From a virus: a DNA stretch of 64,000 nt. Under the pieces are notes generated by a model. That model was not told the origin of the DNA, did no database searches, and was given only the letters and a program-made list of their open reading frames with translations. Positions within the stretch are counted from its first letter, which is position 1. Each line of letters opens with the position of its first letter. Positions 2,915 to 45,889 of this stretch are shown here, one piece after another. A program made the position numbers and the translations under genes. The stretch lies in IMG/VR virus record IMGVR_UViG_3300008120_000440, positions 1 through 64,000 of that record; one strand, 5' to 3'.

Positions 2915-3834
2915 ATTCAATATTTATACAAATCCCATCTTACAATGATTTTGAATTACCCAAAACAGTTGCAAGTGCAATACATAATTGCAGCAATTCG
3001 TCAAAATTGCATTTTGGTATTGCAAACTGCGTGCTTGAGGATGGGTTGATAGAACGCCCAATATGTAAAAGCCCTCACAGAATATCAATGAGAACAGATA
3101 TTGCTCCAGATGGTATTGGAATTGGTGAGTCGCGCTATATTGCAAATAGTTTTTACGACGGCGAAAGATACTATTTGCAAATAGATGCACACATGAGGTT
3201 TAAGAAAAATTGGGATTTGGGTCTAATTGAATCAGTAAATGAATACATAAACGAAGGCATTGAAAAACCTTTAGTCAGCATGTACCCAGCGGCATATTGG
3301 TACGACGATTCAATGAATGAAGTAAAAGACACAAACAGTACGGTTACAAAAATTGCATTTATTGAAAAATTTGAAGATTTTAAAGTATTAAATTTTCCAC
3401 ACCAAACAGCAATTGGCTCGCATTATATGTGTGGATATACGCCTTCTGTTTCTGGAGGCTCAATATTCACTGTTGGGGATTTTGCCTTAGTTAAGCCAAA
3501 TAGAAAAATTGCTTTTTGGGGGGAAGAGATGCTTATTGCGGCAAGAGCATTTACTAGCGGATTTATTCCAGTCATCCCTAAAAACGCATATTTGTTTCAT
3601 TTGTATTTTGATGCCGCAAAGACAATCTTGCAAAACAAAAGAAACCATGCATGGCAGGACTTCCCAGAATTATGGTCAGAGATGGTTAACGAATCAAATA
3701 AAGAATTTCTATCTATTTTTGAAAACAACATAATTGGTGAATTTGCACTAGGGACTGAGCGGACTCTTGATGAGTACTTTGAATTTGCGGGTATCAACTT
3801 TGCCGAGAGAACAGTAGTGACAAGAAGTTACTAG
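2911..3834 (+). CDS. GlcNAc-transferase-family glycosyltransferase (PF11397-like)
   Basis: 307 aa, starting at an ATG that overlaps the upstream stop (ATGA). The N-terminus MNSIFIQIPSYNDFELPKT and the later YYLQIDAHMRF-NWD block match the GlcNAc glycosyltransferase family (PF11397). In that family the D-x-H of the HMRF block is the metal/UDP-sugar site. A GSHYMCGYTPSVSGGSIF segment and WGEEM follow, as in the family. The product is likely soluble, with no membrane segment seen. Members add GlcNAc to hydroxylated residues of proteins, for example hydroxyproline in Skp1 of Dictyostelium. The prolyl-hydroxylase-like gene directly downstream is therefore a natural partner: hydroxylate, then glycosylate. 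The acceptor in this phage is not known. Confidence 0.8.
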   Translation: MNSIFIQIPSYNDFELPKTVASAIHNCSNSSKLHFGIANCVLEDGLIERPICKSPHRISMRTDIAPDGIGIGESRYIANSFYDGERYYLQIDAHMRFKKNWDLGLIESVNEYINEGIEKPLVSMYPAAYWYDDSMNEVKDTNSTVTKIAFIEKFEDFKVLNFPHQTAIGSHYMCGYTPSVSGGSIFTVGDFALVKPNRKIAFWGEEMLIAARAFTSGFIPVIPKNAYLFHLYFDAAKTILQNKRNHAWQDFPELWSEMVNESNKEFLSIFENNIIGEFALGTERTLDEYFEFAGINFAERTVVTRSY

Positions 3835-3876: not shown

Positions 3877-4866
3877 ATGGCACTACCATCAACACCAAAA
3901 ATAGGCGACAAGGAACTTCTTGAAATTAGCCAATTTCAATTTGAAGACCTTGGAAACGGGCTTGTCGTATTTAAGAATGTTTTCAATGTGGAGAAATTTG
4001 TTTTATCCCATATTGACGACTGCGCAGAAGAAGCGCATAAGGGCAGATGGTCGTATGTCATTGGTGAAGATGGTGTTCAGTATGGGATTAATGAAGATGG
4101 ATTCAGGTACAGGATGGAAGATGTCCCTGCCGCGCCAGTTCGCCTTCTCGCTCCAGTAGATGAAAATACACAAAAGGAAATCCTTGACTATTTCGTATAT
4201 CTTGAAGACACGATTTACAAGTGTCTAATTAGATACATAGACATGTTCCCGCTAATTGTTGGAAGCCTTTGGTGGAAAACTCGTGGACACATTCTTCGCT
4301 ACCACGGACAAGGAGTTCTTGGTTGGCATCAAGATAACGATACGAATTACAAGGTTACTGGTGGGGTCCGTTACATGCCAAAAGGCATGGTCGCATCAAG
4401 GCAGACGGCTGGTGCATTGGCGTACTTTAACGACCATGTTGAGACTGCAGAGGAACTTGATGGAGAGAACTTCTGCGGCGGAACGCTTAAGTTTCCATAC
4501 TTGGGCATTGAGTACAAGCCGCAAAAGGGCGACATCATATTCTTCCCCACGAACTACATATGCGCTCATGGGGTAACAAAAATGGAAGGCGGCACTCGCT
4601 ATGCGTACCTCACATTCTTTGGCCAGGGTGCCGATGACGAGGCGGCAAATATCAGGATTGCTGAGAGCAAAGATTCAAACGAGTGGTGTCCGCCAGTTTG
4701 GTTTGATGAAATTTACGACGACTATGAGCGTTACTGCAAATCCGATTACTCGCGATGGATGAAGCCAGTTGAAGGTCTTGAGGTTGGCTCCAACCCAGTA
4801 TTCCAAAACAGATGCGTGACGCAATACGGGGGAACCCATACTGCAAAAGAAATTGCGAAAGACTGA
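3877..4866 (+). CDS. 2-oxoglutarate/Fe(II)-dependent oxygenase, prolyl 4-hydroxylase-like
   Basis: 329 aa. The double-stranded beta-helix core has the iron ligands H151 and D153 (WHQDND) and H231 (CAHGV), with R241 (GGTRYAYL) for 2-oxoglutarate. The reaction is expected to be O2-dependent hydroxylation with decarboxylation of 2-oxoglutarate to succinate. The N-terminal GNGLVVFKNVF signature recurs in the four minus-strand genes at 6374, 7111, 7866 and 8713, so this is the plus-strand member of a duplicated subfamily. It is longer than minimal prolyl hydroxylases (~200 aa) because of an N-terminal ~100-aa region and a ~60-aa C-terminal tail. Four bases separate it from the TauD-like gene. The substrate is unknown: protein Pro/Lys, nucleic acid or small molecule. 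Confidence 0.85.
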   Translation: MALPSTPKIGDKELLEISQFQFEDLGNGLVVFKNVFNVEKFVLSHIDDCAEEAHKGRWSYVIGEDGVQYGINEDGFRYRMEDVPAAPVRLLAPVDENTQKEILDYFVYLEDTIYKCLIRYIDMFPLIVGSLWWKTRGHILRYHGQGVLGWHQDNDTNYKVTGGVRYMPKGMVASRQTAGALAYFNDHVETAEELDGENFCGGTLKFPYLGIEYKPQKGDIIFFPTNYICAHGVTKMEGGTRYAYLTFFGQGADDEAANIRIAESKDSNEWCPPVWFDEIYDDYERYCKSDYSRWMKPVEGLEVGSNPVFQNRCVTQYGGTHTAKEIAKD

Positions 4867-5668: not shown

Positions 5669-6377
5669 AAAATATGGACAACTACATCTACGACGGATGG
5701 GAAGAAGTAAGAATAAATTCCGAGGACAAAAAACACATTCATGTTCATGAGAATTTTATTTCTGAAGAAGATTTGGTTAAAATAAATGAATTTTGTCTAA
5801 CCGCTGAACACATTGAATCAAATCCATTAATCCTCATTGATTACATACCGACCGTTGTAAAAAATTACGAAACCGAAATAACCAAGATTCTTCGTTCATA
5901 TAGGGACAAAATATGTAAACTTTTAGAGGAAACATACGACTGTAAAATAAACATCAATTCTGGTTATTCGGAAATTTCAAGTATTTCTCGTTACACGCCA
6001 GGAACATTACTCAACCCTCATGCGGACAAGGAAACATCAATTCTGGTTATTCGGAAATTTCAAGTATTTCTCGTTACACGCCAGGAACATTACTCAACCC
6101 TCATGCGGACAAGGTGTGCGAATCCTGGCGCGACCTAAGCAATGTTCTCTATTTCAACGACTCGTACGAGGGTGGAGAAATATATTTTTATCAATATGGC
6201 ATTGAGTTCAAACCAAAGGCTGGGACGCTATTGATATTCCCGTCTGGGGCAAATTTTGGCCATGGAGTGAAACAAATAACATCTGGCAATCGCCTCGTAA
6301 CAAGCACATTTTGGGTTGTTGAAAAATGGAACAGCATGGATTATGCGAATTGGCAAAGTTACCATCCGATTGTTTAA
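5665..6377 (+). pseudogene. 2OG-Fe(II) oxygenase gene broken by an 83-bp tandem duplication
   Basis: The frame beginning at 5665 runs to a stop at 6138 and carries the N-terminal half and the first iron motif (NPHADK). The second half (HGVKQITSGNR and the C-terminus) lies in another frame, ending at 6377. The break is an exact 83-bp tandem repeat (5949-6031 and 6032-6114). Removing one copy leaves 630 bases, an uninterrupted 209-aa oxygenase. As sequenced, the gene would yield a truncated 157-aa protein lacking the distal His and Arg. Either this is a recent inactivating duplication (reversible by slippage or recombination) or an assembly artefact. The stop overlaps the stop of the convergent gene at 6374. 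Confidence 0.8.
5949..6114 (+). repeat. Perfect 83-bp tandem duplication (2 copies)
   Basis: Copy 1 is 5949-6031 and copy 2 is 6032-6114, identical base for base, beginning aaacatcaattctgg and ending gcggacaagg. The length is not a multiple of three, so it shifts the frame of the oxygenase gene at 5665. It encodes the region just before and including the HxD iron-binding motif. Confidence 0.95.
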
Positions 6378-7114
6378 TTGGAAATAACCCCAACTGGAAC
6401 AAATTTCTGTTGAGTGTTCTTGGCTTTGATGTCTTCAAGCAAGTGCATCACACTTTCCGCTGGATTAAATTCAGGTTCGCCGTGTCCATACCACCTGAGA
6501 TAGGCGTACCTTGTCCCCTGTGTAACTGGGGCGACCTCATGGCATCCGACAAAAGACGATGGGTATATAAAAACCGAACCAACTTTTGGCTTGCTATTTA
6601 TTCCCCATATTCGCCATGATATCTGTCCACCTTCAAAGTCGTCATTCAAAAATGCTCCAGCAGTCAGAATATTGTAAATGGGGATACTGTTCAAAATTGT
6701 TACGCCATCATCCGCGTATGCGATATTGCAATCAGAGTGTGGGCCAATACATTGTCCATTTTCGTATTTGATTACATACCCATTAGTAACCCATCTGACA
6801 TTTTCTACGACTACTGGAAAAATTTTGCAATATTCAACCATGCATTTATGAATTGAGTCTTGCAGATATTTTAAAAAGTTTGCGTTTTCTTCATTTAGTG
6901 AATGCAGATTTGTGTATCTGATTGGTGATTCGTTTGCATGTTCCCGTGGTATTTCATACCCACCTTCTGTGCGGGTATTTTCAATTTGTTTATTTGAATC
7001 ACCATTGTCAATGGTTGATTCTAGGCTATTTGTGAATTTCTTAAAATATTCTGGGTCAACAGTAAATGCATTATCAAATTTGACTATGGCGTTACCCATG
7101 TGTGTGATAATCAT
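6374..7114 (-). CDS. 2OG-Fe(II) oxygenase, prolyl 4-hydroxylase-like (paralogue 2)
   Basis: 246 aa. The iron/2OG motif set is GPHSDC (H, D) and GCHEV...GTRYAYL (H, R). The N-terminal MGNAIVKFDNAFT matches the shared subfamily signature LGxGxxxF. Its stop codon shares the TTAA palindrome with the stop of the convergent plus-strand gene, so the two strands meet here with no spacer and no terminator. The start overlaps the stop of the upstream minus-strand gene (ATGA). With the genes at 7111, 7866 and 8713 it forms a tandem paralogue array. Likely a soluble cytoplasmic hydroxylase; substrate unknown. Confidence 0.83.
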   Translation of the reverse strand: MIITHMGNAIVKFDNAFTVDPEYFKKFTNSLESTIDNGDSNKQIENTRTEGGYEIPREHANESPIRYTNLHSLNEENANFLKYLQDSIHKCMVEYCKIFPVVVENVRWVTNGYVIKYENGQCIGPHSDCNIAYADDGVTILNSIPIYNILTAGAFLNDDFEGGQISWRIWGINSKPKVGSVFIYPSSFVGCHEVAPVTQGTRYAYLRWYGHGEPEFNPAESVMHLLEDIKAKNTQQKFVPVGVISN

Positions 7115-7869
7115 AATTCACCAACTTCTACTTTTTTCTGAAAGTTATTAGCAACTTTTGTATCCTCTACACCAATGTCTGAACGAAATTTTTTTAACCA
7201 CAAATTCTTTTTGTCCAAATCATCTTGCCCATCAAAATGTGAGCGCGCATGTGAAAAGAAAGACAAAAAAGCCCATCTTGTTCCAGATGTAATTTGTTTA
7301 ACTTCATGGCTACCAACAAAATTTGAAGGATAAATCAGAGCGTCACCAGCGCGAAGGTCAAGTTCCTCATCAATAACGGTAAATCTAAATTTGCCACCAG
7401 TGAAATCACTATTCAAGACAATTGAAGTGCTCAGAGTATTATCAATTGCAGAAGACGAAATTAACTCAACAGAGTTGTTCTTGTAGGATGCTGAGCAATC
7501 TGAATGTGGTCCCATCCCAGTATTTTGGGCATACTTTATGTAGTGGAGTTGTTTATGTTCGGTTATGCATTCAACAACCGCAGGGAAAACTTTGCAATAA
7601 TCAACAACTGATTGATAAATTTTTTCAGAAATGATTTTTGTAAATTCAAGAGAATCTATGTTTTCAGCATATCGCACAGGATATGTTTTTGAATCAATCT
7701 CTTCGTTGTACTCATATCCACCAGCGGTATAAAGTTTGCCATCTTTTTTAGTGAAGCCTTGTGGGGTTATGTTCTGTTCTATCAACGAAATGTCGTAAGT
7801 TTCAATTTCATCAGCGCCAATAAGTCCACGAATCAGAACAATTCCGCACCCAAGGTGATACCTAATCAT
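7111..7869 (-). CDS. 2OG-Fe(II) oxygenase, prolyl 4-hydroxylase-like (paralogue 3)
   Basis: 252 aa from the ATG at 7869, which overlaps the upstream stop as ATGA. A longer reading from 7896 would run into the neighbour and lacks the family N-terminus. The start gives MIRYHLGCGIVLIRG, matching the LGGGVIVF-type start of its paralogues. Motifs are GPHSDC (H, D) and GSHEV...GTRWAFL (H, R). It is most similar in motif spacing to the gene at 6374. It may duplicate the same reaction on related substrates, or act as a heteromeric partner; the sequence does not decide. Confidence 0.82.
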   Translation of the reverse strand: MIRYHLGCGIVLIRGLIGADEIETYDISLIEQNITPQGFTKKDGKLYTAGGYEYNEEIDSKTYPVRYAENIDSLEFTKIISEKIYQSVVDYCKVFPAVVECITEHKQLHYIKYAQNTGMGPHSDCSASYKNNSVELISSSAIDNTLSTSIVLNSDFTGGKFRFTVIDEELDLRAGDALIYPSNFVGSHEVKQITSGTRWAFLSFFSHARSHFDGQDDLDKKNLWLKKFRSDIGVEDTKVANNFQKKVEVGEL

Positions 7870-8726
7870 GAGTGCATACTTTCTACTAAATGCCACGCTG
7901 GAGAACTTTTGTCAACACCGCAGTTGATTAGATGGTTTCTAAAGTCTTCACGCAATGTGGGGAGATACACATTGGTTGAAACTGCAGCAAGTTCTGGCTG
8001 AGTGATTGGGTCAGCAATGAATTCGTTTACTGCAGGATTGGGTGAACCGTGCGCGTACCAGCCTAGATATGTGTACCTGTTTCCTGCAGTTATTGGTTCA
8101 ATCTCATGCGCAGCCATAAAATTTGACGGGAACATTAAAATATCGCCAGGATTTGGCGTGTAGCGGATATCTAGATAATTAAAGTAATGCGCACCACCAG
8201 AAAAACCGTTATTAAAGTAAATAAGTGCAGTAAGCGTATTCCTGGTTGCTAGTTGGTCTGTCGGCTCGCCAAAACCGTATGAATAGTCGGCACTCGTATC
8301 TGAGTGGGGACCCAGTAGGCGGCCTCCATGCTCTATTGAGTATGCAACCAGATGGCCTTTTACCTTCCACCAGATATTTTTGTAAGCCAGTGGAAACTCA
8401 ACTAGATACTTAAGCAGATACTTATCGCGAGAATTTTCAAGAAATTTTAAAAACTCAATAACATCTGCCTGCTCGCTTCTGTGTATTGAAGCACCGCGAC
8501 GAGGCATATTCATCGTGTCTTCATAATCAAAAAAATATCCACTTTTATTTAAAAATCCAGGCCTGCCCGACTCTGGGTCAATTGCCTCTTTGTACATGTC
8601 GTTGCGTTCAGCCGATACTGCATTTTCTGCAAATTCGCATGCCCAGTCAAAATCAAATGTTATCGCATCTCTGAATACGATTACACCGCCGCCGAGGTGC
8701 TCGGGAGCGACATCATTGTAAATCAT
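7866..8726 (-). CDS. 2OG-Fe(II) oxygenase, prolyl 4-hydroxylase-like (paralogue 4)
   Basis: 286 aa. It has the subfamily N-terminus HLGGGVIVFRDAITF, GPHSDT for the first iron ligands, and AAHEIEPITAGNRYTYL for the distal His and Arg. AGGAAAG precedes the ATG. The start overlaps the stop of the 8713 gene by 14 bases. A C-terminal extension of ~55 residues beyond the catalytic core resembles that of the 3877 and 8713 products in position, although the residues differ. No signal peptide or membrane segment is seen. Confidence 0.83.
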   Translation of the reverse strand: MIYNDVAPEHLGGGVIVFRDAITFDFDWACEFAENAVSAERNDMYKEAIDPESGRPGFLNKSGYFFDYEDTMNMPRRGASIHRSEQADVIEFLKFLENSRDKYLLKYLVEFPLAYKNIWWKVKGHLVAYSIEHGGRLLGPHSDTSADYSYGFGEPTDQLATRNTLTALIYFNNGFSGGAHYFNYLDIRYTPNPGDILMFPSNFMAAHEIEPITAGNRYTYLGWYAHGSPNPAVNEFIADPITQPELAAVSTNVYLPTLREDFRNHLINCGVDKSSPAWHLVESMHS

Positions 8727-9633
8727 CTTTGTTTCTTTCCTGGATTAATTCTTGAGTGGTACCACTGCTGTTGTTTATGCGATTTAATGGCAATGTTAGC
8801 ATTTTATATTTATCAGAATCGGAGTTGTATTTGCTATTTATATAAGTGGAATAGTCGTCAAAAACTTCTGGTATCCAAACTTGAGATGACTTTAGTTTAA
8901 GTGCGCCAGAATCGGATGGACAAATACCCCTCTTCACATCCTCGGAGCCATGCGAAAAATATGATATGTATGCATACCTTGAACCACTATGAAGTTCTTT
9001 TACCCTATGCGTACCCATGTAATTTGACGGAAACATAATGATGTCACCAGACTTTGGCTTGTAGCAAATGCCAAGATAAGGGAACTCAAGTTCCCCACCA
9101 ACATATTCGTAATCACCGCATTCTTCAGAAGAGTTAGCGGAGTCATTTAAGTACAATATTGAGCCGACAACATGCCTTGTAGCGACTTGCATGTCTGGCA
9201 CCGCTCCAGGTTGATAATTGACATCGTTATCTGAGTGAAAACCCATGTCCGAACCACTCCTGTAAGCGACAACATGGCCGTGCGTTCTCCACCATAGAGA
9301 CGGAAGAATCATTGGGAAATGCTCTACATATCTAATTAAACATGAATATACGGCATCTTCGCATTTATCAAAAAATATATGCTTTTCATCTGTTCTGTCG
9401 TCTGGGGCAAATCCAGTAATTCTGTTAACACGATAAATATCCTCTAATGGGTATCTATGTCCAGAACGATTTATGGCATGTAGAGCATTGCCGCTTTCAT
9501 CGTGGATGATTGTAAAATCTTGTTCTACAACTTTTTCGTGAAGTTCTGCCAAATATGGAATTATGAAGTCGTGGTCCACTTCAACCACATTCCTAAAGAC
9601 GAGAACTCCTCCGCCGAGATTCTCAATATCCAT
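8713..9633 (-). CDS. 2OG-Fe(II) oxygenase, prolyl 4-hydroxylase-like (paralogue 5)
   Basis: 306 aa. It starts MDIENLGGGVLVFRNVVEV, with GFHSDNDVNY for H and D and GTHRVKELHSGSRYAYI for the distal His and 2OG-binding Arg. The HSDND and FPYLGI/CYKPKSGDIIMFPSNY blocks are close to the plus-strand gene at 3877 (HQDND, FPYLGIEYKP). These two are therefore probably the closest pair, duplicated to opposite strands. Only one base separates it from the glutathione peroxidase gene upstream. Confidence 0.83.
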   Translation of the reverse strand: MDIENLGGGVLVFRNVVEVDHDFIIPYLAELHEKVVEQDFTIIHDESGNALHAINRSGHRYPLEDIYRVNRITGFAPDDRTDEKHIFFDKCEDAVYSCLIRYVEHFPMILPSLWWRTHGHVVAYRSGSDMGFHSDNDVNYQPGAVPDMQVATRHVVGSILYLNDSANSSEECGDYEYVGGELEFPYLGICYKPKSGDIIMFPSNYMGTHRVKELHSGSRYAYISYFSHGSEDVKRGICPSDSGALKLKSSQVWIPEVFDDYSTYINSKYNSDSDKYKMLTLPLNRINNSSGTTQELIQERNKDDLQ

Positions 9634-42625: not shown

Positions 42626-43789
42626 CTATTGTTGTTGGTTTCCGTCAATGTCTTGTCCATCTTCGCCGAGCCTGAGCGCAAGTTGACGAACCGCATGGAC
42701 TTTGGTTTTTGGGCCGATAGGACTTGCTGATTCACCGACATCAAGAGAGCCCATAAGCATCGTCCTAATCAATTGATAAATAGTGTAGGACTTTGGGTCA
42801 GCCAAGTGCTTTCGTCTGAATTCCGCAACAAAAGATTTTGCTCGTCGGGTTTTGAACTCACCAATCATGTAGTCATCAATGAAGTAACTAGCACCCTCAA
42901 AGCCAAGTTTTGCGTAATTGTTGACTAGCGCTTCTATGTCAACCGAGGCCCAATAAAGTCGCTGAGCATCAATGTATGGAAATACTTCTACCAGTCTGTC
43001 GTAGAATTCTGGCTCAGTTGCAACAACATCGCCTATACGGCGAATGGCAACTGAGTGCAAAGGTATCCCAACTCTGCTATTACTGTCGGTTATTGCGGCA
43101 ACATCGTAATAAGAGCAGTACTCAGCATTGTGCTCTTCCGACAAAAATTTGAATACATCATTTGATTGCCAGTCATAAATTACTTTTGCGAACTTTAATG
43201 GAATCCCTTTTTTGTTTTTGTACGGTGTAACGATGTAGTTCTCATGCAACTTCTGAACTAGTGAACGGTAGCGAATCATGGATTCATTTGCTCTCACACC
43301 AGTAATAAACGCAACACTCCCCTGCTTGCCCTGCATCGTGTAGTAGTCAACTGATTCAGGAAGAGGCTTTGTCGCATCAAGTCCAAAATGCTCAGCCCTA
43401 ATCGCCCATGATGGCATCGGACGAATCAAGCGACCTTCTTTCTCTCGCTTGCTGCTCCATAGAATTGCTGACTGTCGTTTACCTAGAACCCAAATTTCAG
43501 TTCCATATGGAAGGCAATACCACTCCATATCAACCCAGTCGTAATTTCTGACTTTTTCAATATATTCAATGGTTCGTGGGCTAACCATTTCTTCATCGCG
43601 GAAAATCACTTTTACTGGGCCAAGCCCTCGCTCTTCGTGCACTTCTTTTGCTAGGTAAAGAACTGCTGACGAATCTTTTCCACCAGAAAACTGAACACAT
43701 ACAGTGTCAAAAGTATCGTAAACATGCCTGATGCGCGCCCGAGCCGCCTCAACGCAGTCCATGTCAAGAAATAGTCGTTGGCGTGTCAT
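42626..43789 (-). CDS. PAPS reductase-family PP-loop protein (IbrA/DndC-like)
   Basis: 387 aa. The ATP-pyrophosphatase PP-loop is VQFSGGKDSSAVLYLAKEV at residues ~31-50. Downstream elements include FRDEEMVSPRTIEYIE, SVAFITGVRANESMIRYR and KVIYDWQSNDVFKFLSE. This is a phosphoadenosine-phosphosulfate-reductase superfamily protein, of the group that activates substrates as adenylates, for example in sulfur transfer to nucleic acids. No CxxC that would bind a cluster is evident. The start overlaps the stop of the first ParB gene (TAATG). With the two ParB genes it makes a three-gene cassette of unknown substrate; DNA modification is one possibility. Confidence 0.85.
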   Translation of the reverse strand: MTRQRLFLDMDCVEAARARIRHVYDTFDTVCVQFSGGKDSSAVLYLAKEVHEERGLGPVKVIFRDEEMVSPRTIEYIEKVRNYDWVDMEWYCLPYGTEIWVLGKRQSAILWSSKREKEGRLIRPMPSWAIRAEHFGLDATKPLPESVDYYTMQGKQGSVAFITGVRANESMIRYRSLVQKLHENYIVTPYKNKKGIPLKFAKVIYDWQSNDVFKFLSEEHNAEYCSYYDVAAITDSNSRVGIPLHSVAIRRIGDVVATEPEFYDRLVEVFPYIDAQRLYWASVDIEALVNNYAKLGFEGASYFIDDYMIGEFKTRRAKSFVAEFRRKHLADPKSYTIYQLIRTMLMGSLDVGESASPIGPKTKVHAVRQLALRLGEDGQDIDGNQQQ

Positions 43790-44589
43790 TACACCTCGCA
43801 GTGTTCGTCAATAAAATTCATTAACCGTTCAGCAGTTGTATTTCCATCTATTGATGGATTACTGCGAAGCCAGCGCACAAAGTTGTACCAACGGCTCTGT
43901 TGTTCTGGGGTGTCAAAAACAATCGTGTATTGAACAATCGCTTGCGGTGCGGCGTTTGGCATTGCTGTAGCAGCGCCCTTTACTGCCAGTTCTTTTTGGT
44001 CATGCTCTGGACTGGCGACTATTTTTGCTTCTTCGTTTTCATCAACTTTGACCATTGAGCGAAGTTCTTCCTTGTATTCCTCTTGCTGCTGAACAGAAAG
44101 CGGATTCACAATTGCTGGAGGAATGTACTCTCCGCCTGTAACAACTTCAACTTCACGCAGTGTCGCTCGCTCATCAATTGCGGCAATTTCAAATTCGTCC
44201 CAGCCAAGGTTGTCCCATAAAGTTATGTAGTCATCAGAAACCGTTGACAAAAGATTATTTAGTAAATCATCGTCTGTATAGCCAAGTTCCATGGTTCTGT
44301 TATCAGCAAGCGCGTATGCAATTGCCCTCTTGTCATCACCCTCAAGGAAAATACACGCAATCTTGTCCCAGCCCAAACGCTTTGCTGCCTGAAGTTGGTG
44401 ATTACCAGCAATAACCGTCATTGTCCCATCGTTATTTTTGCGAGCAACAATCGGCTTGACCTGCCCAAACTCTTGGTAGGAAGCAGCGATTGCGTCAATG
44501 TCGCCTTTGCGTGGATTGCCCTCAAGTTGCTCAAGGCTGTTGATGTCAACAGCAAGCGATTTAAGTGATTCGTGAATTCCGTTTTTCAT
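43789..44589 (-). CDS. ParB/Spo0J-type nuclease-domain protein (first ParB)
   Basis: 266 aa. ParB domain: LEGNPRKGDIDAIAASYQEF, GQVKPIVARKNNDGTMTVIA and GNHQLQAAKRLGW, followed by ALADNRTMELGYTDDDLLNN. The C-terminal ~110 residues (VKGAATAMPNAAPQAIVQYT, FDTPEQQSRWYNFVRWLRSN) form an extra domain seen in phage ParB-like proteins. No partner ParA ATPase or parS-like repeat is nearby, so plasmid partition is unlikely. Overlaps the 112-aa gene by four bases (ATGA) and the PAPS-reductase gene by one. Confidence 0.85.
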   Translation of the reverse strand: MKNGIHESLKSLAVDINSLEQLEGNPRKGDIDAIAASYQEFGQVKPIVARKNNDGTMTVIAGNHQLQAAKRLGWDKIACIFLEGDDKRAIAYALADNRTMELGYTDDDLLNNLLSTVSDDYITLWDNLGWDEFEIAAIDERATLREVEVVTGGEYIPPAIVNPLSVQQQEEYKEELRSMVKVDENEEAKIVASPEHDQKELAVKGAATAMPNAAPQAIVQYTIVFDTPEQQSRWYNFVRWLRSNPSIDGNTTAERLMNFIDEHCEV

Positions 44590-44925: not shown

Positions 44926-45465
44926 TTATTTGCCCTTTTCTAGTGCACTGAATAGTGGCTCCCAATCTATCTTGGTCAGTGCAGAAAGTTGTTCATCCGA
45001 CCACTTATATTGAGACTCTCCAAGCCTGGCTAAAACCATTTGCTCAAGGACCCACGCATCACACACATCGTCTGCAGATGGGCCAGTAAAACTAATTCCA
45101 GATATTGCAAATACTGAAAACAAAACTTCTTTTTTCCCAGCGTTTCCTTTCCCAGTAGCAAATTTTGCACGGCATGTTGGCGGAACATCAATGATTGGGA
45201 ATCCGTGTTTAGTCAGGAGGGATTTGACCACGCCGCCAAGTTCTCCTATTGCATGTGCTCTACTGAACTTTGAGCCAAATGAGTACCCCTCTATTAGAAT
45301 TGCGGCTGGTCTGGTTGAAGAAGCGATTTCAAGTATTTTTTCTGAAATCTCAATCAGGCGAGCAGTCCCTTTTTGCTTTGACGCAATAGCAACATATTCC
45401 CCACCAACGCACACGCCAGTAGATGTAAGGGATAGGTCAATCCCCATGAATCTTAAATCGCTCAT
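44926..45465 (-). CDS. RuvC-like Holliday junction resolvase
   Basis: 179 aa. RNase H-fold acidic residues: D in FMGIDLSLTSTGVCV, E in AAILIEGYSFG, and the C-terminal D pair in SADDVCDAWVLEQM, matching RuvC/phage resolvase architecture. The KGNAGKKEVLF loop before the last acidic pair supports nucleic-acid binding. It resolves branched DNA before packaging. It follows a terminator in the 118-base gap upstream and so may have separate expression. Confidence 0.82.
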   Translation of the reverse strand: MSDLRFMGIDLSLTSTGVCVGGEYVAIASKQKGTARLIEISEKILEIASSTRPAAILIEGYSFGSKFSRAHAIGELGGVVKSLLTKHGFPIIDVPPTCRAKFATGKGNAGKKEVLFSVFAISGISFTGPSADDVCDAWVLEQMVLARLGESQYKWSDEQLSALTKIDWEPLFSALEKGK

Positions 45466-45502: not shown

Positions 45503-45555
45503 AAAAAATAATAGACGCAAGGACAGGGTAAGTCTCCCTACCCTGCCCTCGCGCC
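45503..45555 (-). terminator. Strong intrinsic terminator with G-U pairs
   Basis: On the minus-strand RNA, GGCGCGAGGGCAGGGTA pairs with TACCCTGTCCTTGCGTC around an 8-nt loop: 17 pairs, of which three are G-U. It is followed directly by TATTATTTTTT. On the plus-strand RNA the same three positions would be A-C mismatches, so the structure is built for minus-strand termination. It ends the run from TerL to HNH and sits beside the 23S-like sequence. Confidence 0.8.
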
Positions 45556-45571
45556 TATAACGGTCCTAAGG
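45555..45571 (+). other. 17-nt exact match to the conserved 23S rRNA helix 69-71 core
   Basis: CTATAACGGTCCTAAGG reads on the plus strand. From memory it equals E. coli 23S rRNA C1914-G1930 (loop and 3' strand of helix 69, first bases of helix 71) and is inside the recognition sequence of the homing enzyme I-CeuI. It lies 12 bases after the HNH stop and directly before the terminator stem, so the minus-strand transcript would carry the antisense copy. The match stops sharply on both sides. Confidence 0.75.
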
Positions 45572-45583
45572 ATTACTAGTTTA

Positions 45584-45889
45584 CTACCGTTCCCATCCGT
45601 GCCTTGCAAGTCCTAAATCAAATGCAAGTTGTGGATAATTTCCAATCCTGTTGTGACACGGCCTGCACACGGCGAGCAAGTTTTCTTCATCCAAAATTGA
45701 ACCACCCTGCGAGCGTCTCACTAGTTCGTGAATATCAACAGAGCGATTTTGATTGAACAAAGTTTTTTCGTCATACTTCGCAAACACTTTGCACGCTTGA
45801 CAGTACGGATATTTTTCCAGCAAAGCCTTAACCAATGGTCTGCGAAGTTCGTACTCCGCTTCCTTCTTTTTGCTTCGCTTGCGAATCAT
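45584..45889 (-). CDS. HNH endonuclease
   Basis: 101 aa. Cys pair PYCQACK, the D-I-H-E motif (RSVDIHELVRRSQGG), LLAVCRPCHNRIG with the second Cys pair and final His. These are all elements of an HNH/beta-beta-alpha-metal nuclease with structural zinc. The length is typical of stand-alone phage HNH proteins that assist terminase or act as homing nucleases. The start overlaps the stop of the 45889 gene by one base. It is the last gene before the terminator, and its transcript tail carries the 23S-like sequence. Confidence 0.85.
   Translation of the reverse strand: MIRKRSKKKEAEYELRRPLVKALLEKYPYCQACKVFAKYDEKTLFNQNRSVDIHELVRRSQGGSILDEENLLAVCRPCHNRIGNYPQLAFDLGLARHGWER

What the first reader, a model, noticed from the sequence alone, without database searches (positions are those of the whole stretch)
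45555..45571. 17-nt exact copy of the universal 23S rRNA helix 69-71 core beside an HNH gene and a terminator
CTATAACGGTCCTAAGG is seen directly. From memory it equals E. coli 23S C1914-G1930, the intersubunit bridge region, and part of the I-CeuI homing site. A chance exact 17-mer match to one given sequence in 64 kb is very unlikely (about 1 in 10^5). It is placed between the HNH stop and a strong minus-strand terminator. A minus-strand transcript would thus end with a 17-nt antisense to helix 69/71 followed by the terminator hairpin, the layout of a 3'UTR small RNA. Options: an antisense RNA acting on host ribosomes or rRNA modification, a homing/cleavage site linked to the HNH nuclease, or a relic of recombination with an rRNA gene.
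Basis: partly seen in the sequence, partly recalled or inferred. Interest (0 to 1): 0.85.

Follow-up and report, generated by a model that had tools for sequence, protein, structure and literature searches.

The report
Phage small RNA antisense to 23S rRNA
The 17 bases are the start of a predicted phage small RNA that is perfectly complementary to one of the most conserved parts of the bacterial ribosome, and similar RNAs recur in about two dozen unrelated phage groups, which points to an undescribed way for phages to act on host ribosomes.

Summary
The 17-mer is at 45555-45571 and is not chance. In 2.9 million viral contigs it occurs 117 times, against 5 for a composition-matched control and 0 for another universal 23S segment. 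About 90 hits are diverged relatives of this phage, in which the 17 bases stay nearly invariant beside a hairpin that changes by compensatory mutations. A sigma70-type -10 box (TAnnnT) sits at exactly -12 to -7 in 27 of 30 sequence clusters, so the minus-strand transcript is predicted to start at the first base of the 17-mer: 17-nt anti-23S plus terminator, about 70 nt. The 17-mer and overlapping segments (23S 1906-1940) recur in about 25 flank-unrelated groups, often at terminators or beside tRNAs, including isolated Vibrio, Pseudaeromonas and Staphylococcus phages. The HNH link is incidental. Best explanation: a trans-acting antisense RNA that pairs with 23S helices 69-71 on free or immature 50S subunits and blocks subunit joining or 50S maturation. 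The RNA and its target are well supported; expression and effect are inferred. No Rfam family or paper describing it was found.

The parts
45555..45571 (-). 17-nt antisense element CCTTAGGACCGTTATAG, complementary to 23S rRNA C1914-G1930 (3' part of H69 to H71)
   Evidence: exact match; nearly invariant across diverged relatives; 117 viral stretches vs 5 and 0 for controls
45578..45583 (-). -10 promoter element TAAACT at -12 to -7 from the first base of the 17-mer
   Evidence: TAnnnT at offset -12 in 27 of 30 sequence clusters, 0-3 at every other offset tested; column profile
45503..45571 (-). predicted small RNA, about 69 nt: antisense element + terminator hairpin + U-rich tail
   Evidence: promoter spacing, terminator, fold; inferred, no transcript data
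45513..45556 (-). rho-independent terminator hairpin
   Evidence: covariation in relatives: 10 of 18 pairs with changes on both sides, 98.9% of cells paired, 0 of 500 shuffles as high
45584..45889 (-). small HNH protein gene upstream (neighbour, not part of the system)
   Evidence: Pfam HNH just above cut-off; present without the RNA in many relatives
44926..45465 (-). RuvC-like resolvase gene downstream of the terminator (neighbour)
   Evidence: Pfam RuvC, slightly below cut-off; 0-60 bases after HNH in many relatives that lack the RNA

Best explanation
The minus strand encodes a phage small RNA of about 70 nt that starts at the first base of the 17-mer. Its first 17 nt are perfectly complementary to the near-universal 23S rRNA segment C1914-G1930 (helix 69 loop and 3' strand through helix 71), followed by a terminator hairpin that stabilises the RNA and ends transcription. 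In the infected cell it base-pairs with this segment where it is exposed, on free or immature 50S subunits (it is buried in 70S as bridge B2a), and so hinders subunit joining or 50S maturation, steering or shutting down host ribosome capacity. Shown by computation: the element, near-invariance of the 17 nt, the -10 box at fixed spacing, the covarying terminator, and recurrence in about 25 flank-unrelated phage groups against the same 23S region. Inferred: expression, rRNA binding, and the effect on ribosomes.
For: Control-adjusted enrichment. Cellular genomes (257 Gb) give only 10 hits outside the normal rRNA context, below the roughly 20 expected by chance. In the window family the 17-mer is nearly invariant in 30 clusters while flanks vary, and the -10 element sits at exactly -12/-7 in 27 of 30. 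The hairpin covaries. About 25 groups unrelated in flanking sequence carry overlapping antisense segments within 23S 1906-1940, about half with a terminator detected on the antisense strand. In the fetched viral loci, matches of 17 nt or more to 23S fall only in 1906-1940; elsewhere there are only chance-level 14-16-mers. Several base changes keep RNA pairing through G.U (Vibrio phages, MT835492, L061, L124, L175, L217, L218), some found without a wobble-biased search. Isolated phages carry it: seven Vibrio phage records, IBT_VpB-34, Pseudaeromonas KLEP7, Staphylococcus SpP. A PNA against helix 69 inhibits E. coli growth (PMC7038079 citing Kulik 2017), and helix 69 mutations impair translation or 50S/70S formation (PMC1190176).
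Against: No transcript, binding or phenotype data. A -35 box at normal spacing is missing (a TTRACA-like motif sits about 22 nt above the -10 box) and the generic promoter scan found nothing. Some variants do not keep pairing (L195; parts of KLEP7 and IBT_VpB-34). In the L026 group much of the 17-mer can pair into the terminator stem, which would limit access. A phage also needs ribosomes, so blocking them must be timed or restricted to new subunits. Wobble-only counts are biased by the search patterns.
Confidence: 0.58

Rival explanations
1. The RNA pairs with 23S rRNA but to recruit nucleases (for example RNase III on the 17-bp duplex), so that host rRNA is degraded and recycled rather than just blocked.
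For: Same sequence evidence; the perfect 17-25 bp duplex (-28 kcal/mol for 17 bp) is long enough for double-strand RNases.
Against: Perfect pairing is not kept in every group (G.U and a few mismatches); no evidence on rRNA decay is available.
Confidence: 0.13
2. The RNA shields helices 69-71 from, or competes with, another factor: a host defence RNase acting near there (MazF-mt6 is reported to cut helix 70 of 23S; from memory), an rRNA-modifying enzyme such as RluD, or a recycling factor.
For: The target holds modified and factor-contacting positions; groups cover slightly different parts of 1906-1940, as a footprint-type blocker would.
Against: Shielding would also block subunit joining; no defence gene or modification enzyme was linked to the element.
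Confidence: 0.13
3. Sensor or tether: the antisense segment binds 50S subunits or rRNA fragments to regulate the adjacent terminator or to locate phage mRNAs, rather than to inhibit ribosomes.
For: Many groups lie in a 3'UTR or at a terminator; in the L026 group the antisense segment can pair into the terminator stem.
Against: In the window family the terminator stem hardly depends on the 17-mer, and a -10 box directly upstream predicts a free RNA; downstream genes differ between groups.
Confidence: 0.1
4. DNA-level element: homing or HNH target, attachment site, or guide for an RNA-guided nuclease cutting host rDNA.
For: The 17-mer lies in the I-CeuI site region of 23S genes (from memory); HNH and RuvC genes are adjacent here.
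Against: Groups without HNH or RuvC neighbours, HNH-RuvC pairs without the element, linked -10 box and covarying terminator, no extension of the homing site into the flanks here.
Confidence: 0.04
5. Chance match or passive rRNA relic.
For: A few contigs carry long recent rRNA-like pieces (L228, L255, L260), so phages can pick up such sequence.
Against: 117 vs 5 and 0 in controls; near-invariance in the window family while flanks diverge.
Confidence: 0.02

Closest known systems
Bacterial and phage trans-acting antisense sRNAs, including 3'UTR-derived ones (seed + terminator hairpin)
   Same: short RNA, 5' single-stranded pairing region, intrinsic terminator, linked to gene ends
   Different: target is 23S rRNA rather than mRNA, pairing is long and nearly invariant, and unrelated phage groups carry it against the same site
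Synthetic PNA oligomers against 23S helix 69 (Kulik et al. 2017, as cited in PMC7038079)
   Same: antisense to helix 69; growth inhibition shown for the PNA
   Different: man-made and not encoded by a phage
Archaeal and eukaryotic C/D and H/ACA guide RNAs
   Same: natural RNAs complementary to rRNA
   Different: guide modification with partner proteins; no Rfam match of this kind above threshold here, and bacteria are not known to have them
Ribosome-associated ncRNA of Haloferax (PMC6104027; abstract seen only)
   Same: small RNA acting on translation in association with the ribosome
   Different: cellular and archaeal; its mode of ribosome contact was not compared here
T4 stable RNAs C and D in the tRNA cluster
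   Same: phage stable RNAs near tRNAs, as in several groups here
   Different: no strong complementarity to helix 69 found in a gapless scan
I-CeuI homing site in 23S genes
   Same: contains this 17-mer (from memory)
   Different: flanks differ here, no LAGLIDADG enzyme seen, RNA features instead

Membership tests
Trans-acting small RNA with own promoter and intrinsic terminator | promoter element at correct spacing to the RNA start | tested here: met
   TAnnnT at -12/-7 in 27 of 30 clusters; -35 box not at normal spacing
Trans-acting small RNA with own promoter and intrinsic terminator | intrinsic terminator supported by covariation | tested here: met
Trans-acting small RNA with own promoter and intrinsic terminator | a discrete transcript exists | not testable with these tools
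   no RNA data
Antisense RNA to 23S rRNA | conserved complementarity above chance to one rRNA site | tested here: met
Antisense RNA to 23S rRNA | physical pairing in the cell | not testable with these tools
   needs proximity ligation or probing
I-CeuI-type homing site or HNH-linked site | constant linkage to the nuclease gene | tested here: not met
   variable distance, no HNH in other groups, HNH without site
I-CeuI-type homing site or HNH-linked site | full recognition sequence | tested here: not met
   only 17 contiguous bases, flanks differ; recognition sequence from memory
Guide RNA of an RNA-guided nuclease (omega RNA, TIGR-Tas) | fixed partner nuclease next to the RNA | tested here: not met
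   neighbour genes differ between groups
Known Rfam RNA family | score above gathering threshold | tested here: not met
   no non-tRNA hit at gathering in window or tested loci; none above gathering, other than tRNA, in evalue-mode scans
C/D or H/ACA guide RNA | box motifs and guide architecture | tested here: inconclusive
   only sub-threshold snoRNA hits of chance level; boxes not modelled separately

The most novel reading that the evidence does not exclude
A recurrently evolved class of phage RNAs, also found patchily on Myxococcota chromosomes, targets the near-universal 23S helix 69-71 region to control ribosome subunit joining or biogenesis during infection: a natural antisense inhibitor made by phages that would fit almost any bacterial host.
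Probability: 0.5. Interest if true: 0.93.

Novelty: categorically new. Interest (0 to 1): 0.87.

Why it matters
No phage RNA complementary to the ribosome's own RNA was found in the papers searched. If these RNAs act as inferred, phages have a sequence-universal tool against host ribosomes that needs no protein. It would offer natural examples for antisense antibacterials against helix 69 and could help explain how some phages shut down or retune host translation. The predictions (exact 5' end, exact target, effect of pairing changes) are directly testable with isolated Vibrio and Staphylococcus phages.

Tried and rejected
HNH-linked homing site. rRNA relic or chance. T4 RNAs C and D as relatives: no strong helix 69 complementarity. 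Rfam families: none. Klebsiella TTM-TASP117 and Synechococcus S-CRES hits judged chance. Many 'phage' hits are rRNA records or rRNA contamination. Whole-RNA duplex energies against 23S were uninformative because the hairpin dominates the score. Test for a second antisense element (TCGCTAC downstream): the same motif recurs in the Vibrio, KLEP7, L246, L245 and L023 groups but each alone is weak (p 0.04-0.19), so it is only suggestive. Singletons L006 and L025 may include chance. Paper searches found no description.

Full report
Observation. The 17-mer CTATAACGGTCCTAAGG is at window 45555-45571 and has no second match within three mismatches. On the minus strand, the coding strand of the neighbouring HNH (45584-45889) and RuvC-like (44926-45465) genes, it reads CCTTAGGACCGTTATAG and abuts a strong terminator. 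It is exactly antisense to the 23S segment C1914-G1930 (numbering anchored on the known Psi1915 and Psi1917). The window is a phage (portal, prohead protease, terminase); its terminase is nearest, at about 42% identity, to those of Gordonia and methanogen phages, so an actinobacterial host is only a guess.

Is it more than chance? The exact 17-mer was scanned in 2.9 million IMG/VR contigs: 117 stretches. A control of the same composition (the reversed 17-mer rotated by one base) gave 5, and the antisense of the universal sarcin-ricin loop gave 0, so rRNA contamination does not explain the hits; only one of the 117 (L093) is evidently real rRNA. In 257 Gb of bacterial and archaeal genomes, a pattern that excludes the normal rRNA context gave 10 hits, below the roughly 20 expected at random.

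Anatomy in relatives. About 90 stretches belong to the window's own family, with RuvC downstream and HNH 15 to 1,756 bases upstream. Across 30 sequence clusters the 17 bases are nearly invariant (only C1 to T and T15 to C changes; the search for this set allowed just these two), while surrounding bases vary. Just upstream, T-12, A-11 and T-7 are each 90% conserved; TAnnnT occurs at offset -12 in 27 of 30 clusters and at no other offset in more than 3. This is the position of a sigma70 -10 box for a transcript that starts with the first base of the 17-mer; in the window it is TAAACT at 45583-45578. A TTRACA-like motif lies about 22 bases above it, too far for a standard -35 box. Downstream, the hairpin pairs in 98.9% of cells and 10 of 18 pairs show changes on both sides, with none of 500 shuffles as high. 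So the left half is conserved as sequence and the right half as structure, as expected of an antisense RNA with a terminator.

Independence from HNH. Of 79 HNH-containing loci found without using the 17-mer, 45 carry it exactly and 4 with one change; in most of the others the RuvC gene follows within about 0-60 bases and there is no such RNA. This set is the unbiased test of conservation, and it shows that the RNA is a separate module that is present or absent.

Other phages. Scans with the 17-mer shifted 3' (GACCGTTATAGTTACGG, 11 hits) and 5' (TTCGCTACCTTAGGACC, 21 hits) and with an extended pattern (7 hits) brought in further groups. Clustering by flanking sequence gives 25 groups; some may still be distant relatives (L034 and L222 share gene types; L091 belongs with the window family), and a few singletons may be chance. 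About half have a terminator detected downstream on the antisense strand. Recurrent plan: 5' hairpin, antisense of 17-25 nt, 3' hairpin (L067, L023, L245, L014/L026/L061). Some follow a stop codon (after a head-protein-like gene in L218, after ribonucleotide reductase in L023), others sit next to tRNAs (L217/L220/L222, L001, L212, Vibrio phages). Among isolates: seven Vibrio phage records, IBT_VpB-34, Pseudaeromonas KLEP7 and Staphylococcus SpP. The BLAST E-values of the Vibrio hits alone (about 1) would not be convincing; their intergenic position and the conserved surrounding RNA make them so. In 1.85 Mb of fetched viral loci, matches of 17 nt or more to 23S fall only within 1906-1940; elsewhere only 14-16-mers at about control level occur (loci were selected on this region, but the rest of 23S is an unbiased comparison).

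RNA rather than DNA. Several base changes relative to perfect antisense are A to G or C to T, which keep pairing as G.U. Cases found by unbiased searches: Vibrio phages (two changes), MT835492, L124/L127, L175; others came from patterns that allowed only wobbles. Counter-examples: L195, IBT_VpB-34 and KLEP7. The evidence is supportive, not conclusive. The strand is set by terminators and the -10 box.

Mechanism. The target is the core of intersubunit bridge B2a. In PMC1190176, helix 69 mutations strongly inhibit translation, and A1916G impairs 50S or 70S formation. A PNA against helix 69 inhibits E. coli growth (PMC7038079, citing Kulik 2017). The segment is buried in 70S and exposed on free or immature 50S (established knowledge). 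I therefore infer that the RNA binds free or immature 50S and hinders subunit joining or maturation, sparing translating 70S so that phage translation can go on for a while. Rivals that keep the rRNA target are rRNA decay, shielding from or competing with other factors, and sensing or tethering. None can be separated by sequence alone.

Known or new. No Rfam model other than tRNA reaches threshold, and paper searches found no phage RNA of this kind; subscription papers and preprints were not covered. It works like an antisense sRNA, but I know of no natural antisense RNA of a phage aimed at rRNA, hence the rating; the antisense principle itself is old.

Side finding. Five Myxococcota-type genomes (four of 195 searched, plus that of L204) carry intergenic sequence with CTACCTTAGG(A/G)CCGTTAT(A/G)G, at different chromosomal loci and without phage genes among the neighbours examined; three lineages align around it. 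About one match by chance was expected for that degenerate pattern. The class may not be limited to phages.

Noticed in passing
L237, L238, L239, L240 (and L204), Myxococcota chromosomes: Intergenic sequences with the same anti-23S element, partly aligning in their flanks and lying at different loci without phage genes nearby; an upstream TTACGGCC stretch also matches antisense 23S.
   Followed up: partly
L228 around position 3436-3480 (minus strand): About 40 nt of nearly exact antisense 23S inside an apparent virion structural gene (reads TYPTRNFATLGPL).
   Followed up: partly
L255, L260, L268: Longer antisense-23S pieces (about 35, 60 and several separate segments); possible recent acquisitions that could show how the shorter elements arise, or a chimeric contig for L260.
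   Followed up: no
L208, L231, L245, L246, L023: A second short antisense motif TCGCTAC(C), complementary to the rRNA just 3' of the main target, lies downstream, in L245 and L023 within the terminator loop; permuted order relative to the rRNA.
   Followed up: partly
L252, L270: Antisense TTCGCTACCTTAGGACC followed by CTACGGCC, which would pair on both sides of the helix 69 loop and skip it.
   Followed up: no
window 3877-4866, 6374-7114, 7866-9633: Four 2OG-Fe(II) oxygenase genes, plus a radical SAM/SPASM gene at 1865-2914.
   Followed up: no
window 42626-44589: PAPS-reductase-like gene next to a ParB-N-domain gene.
   Followed up: no
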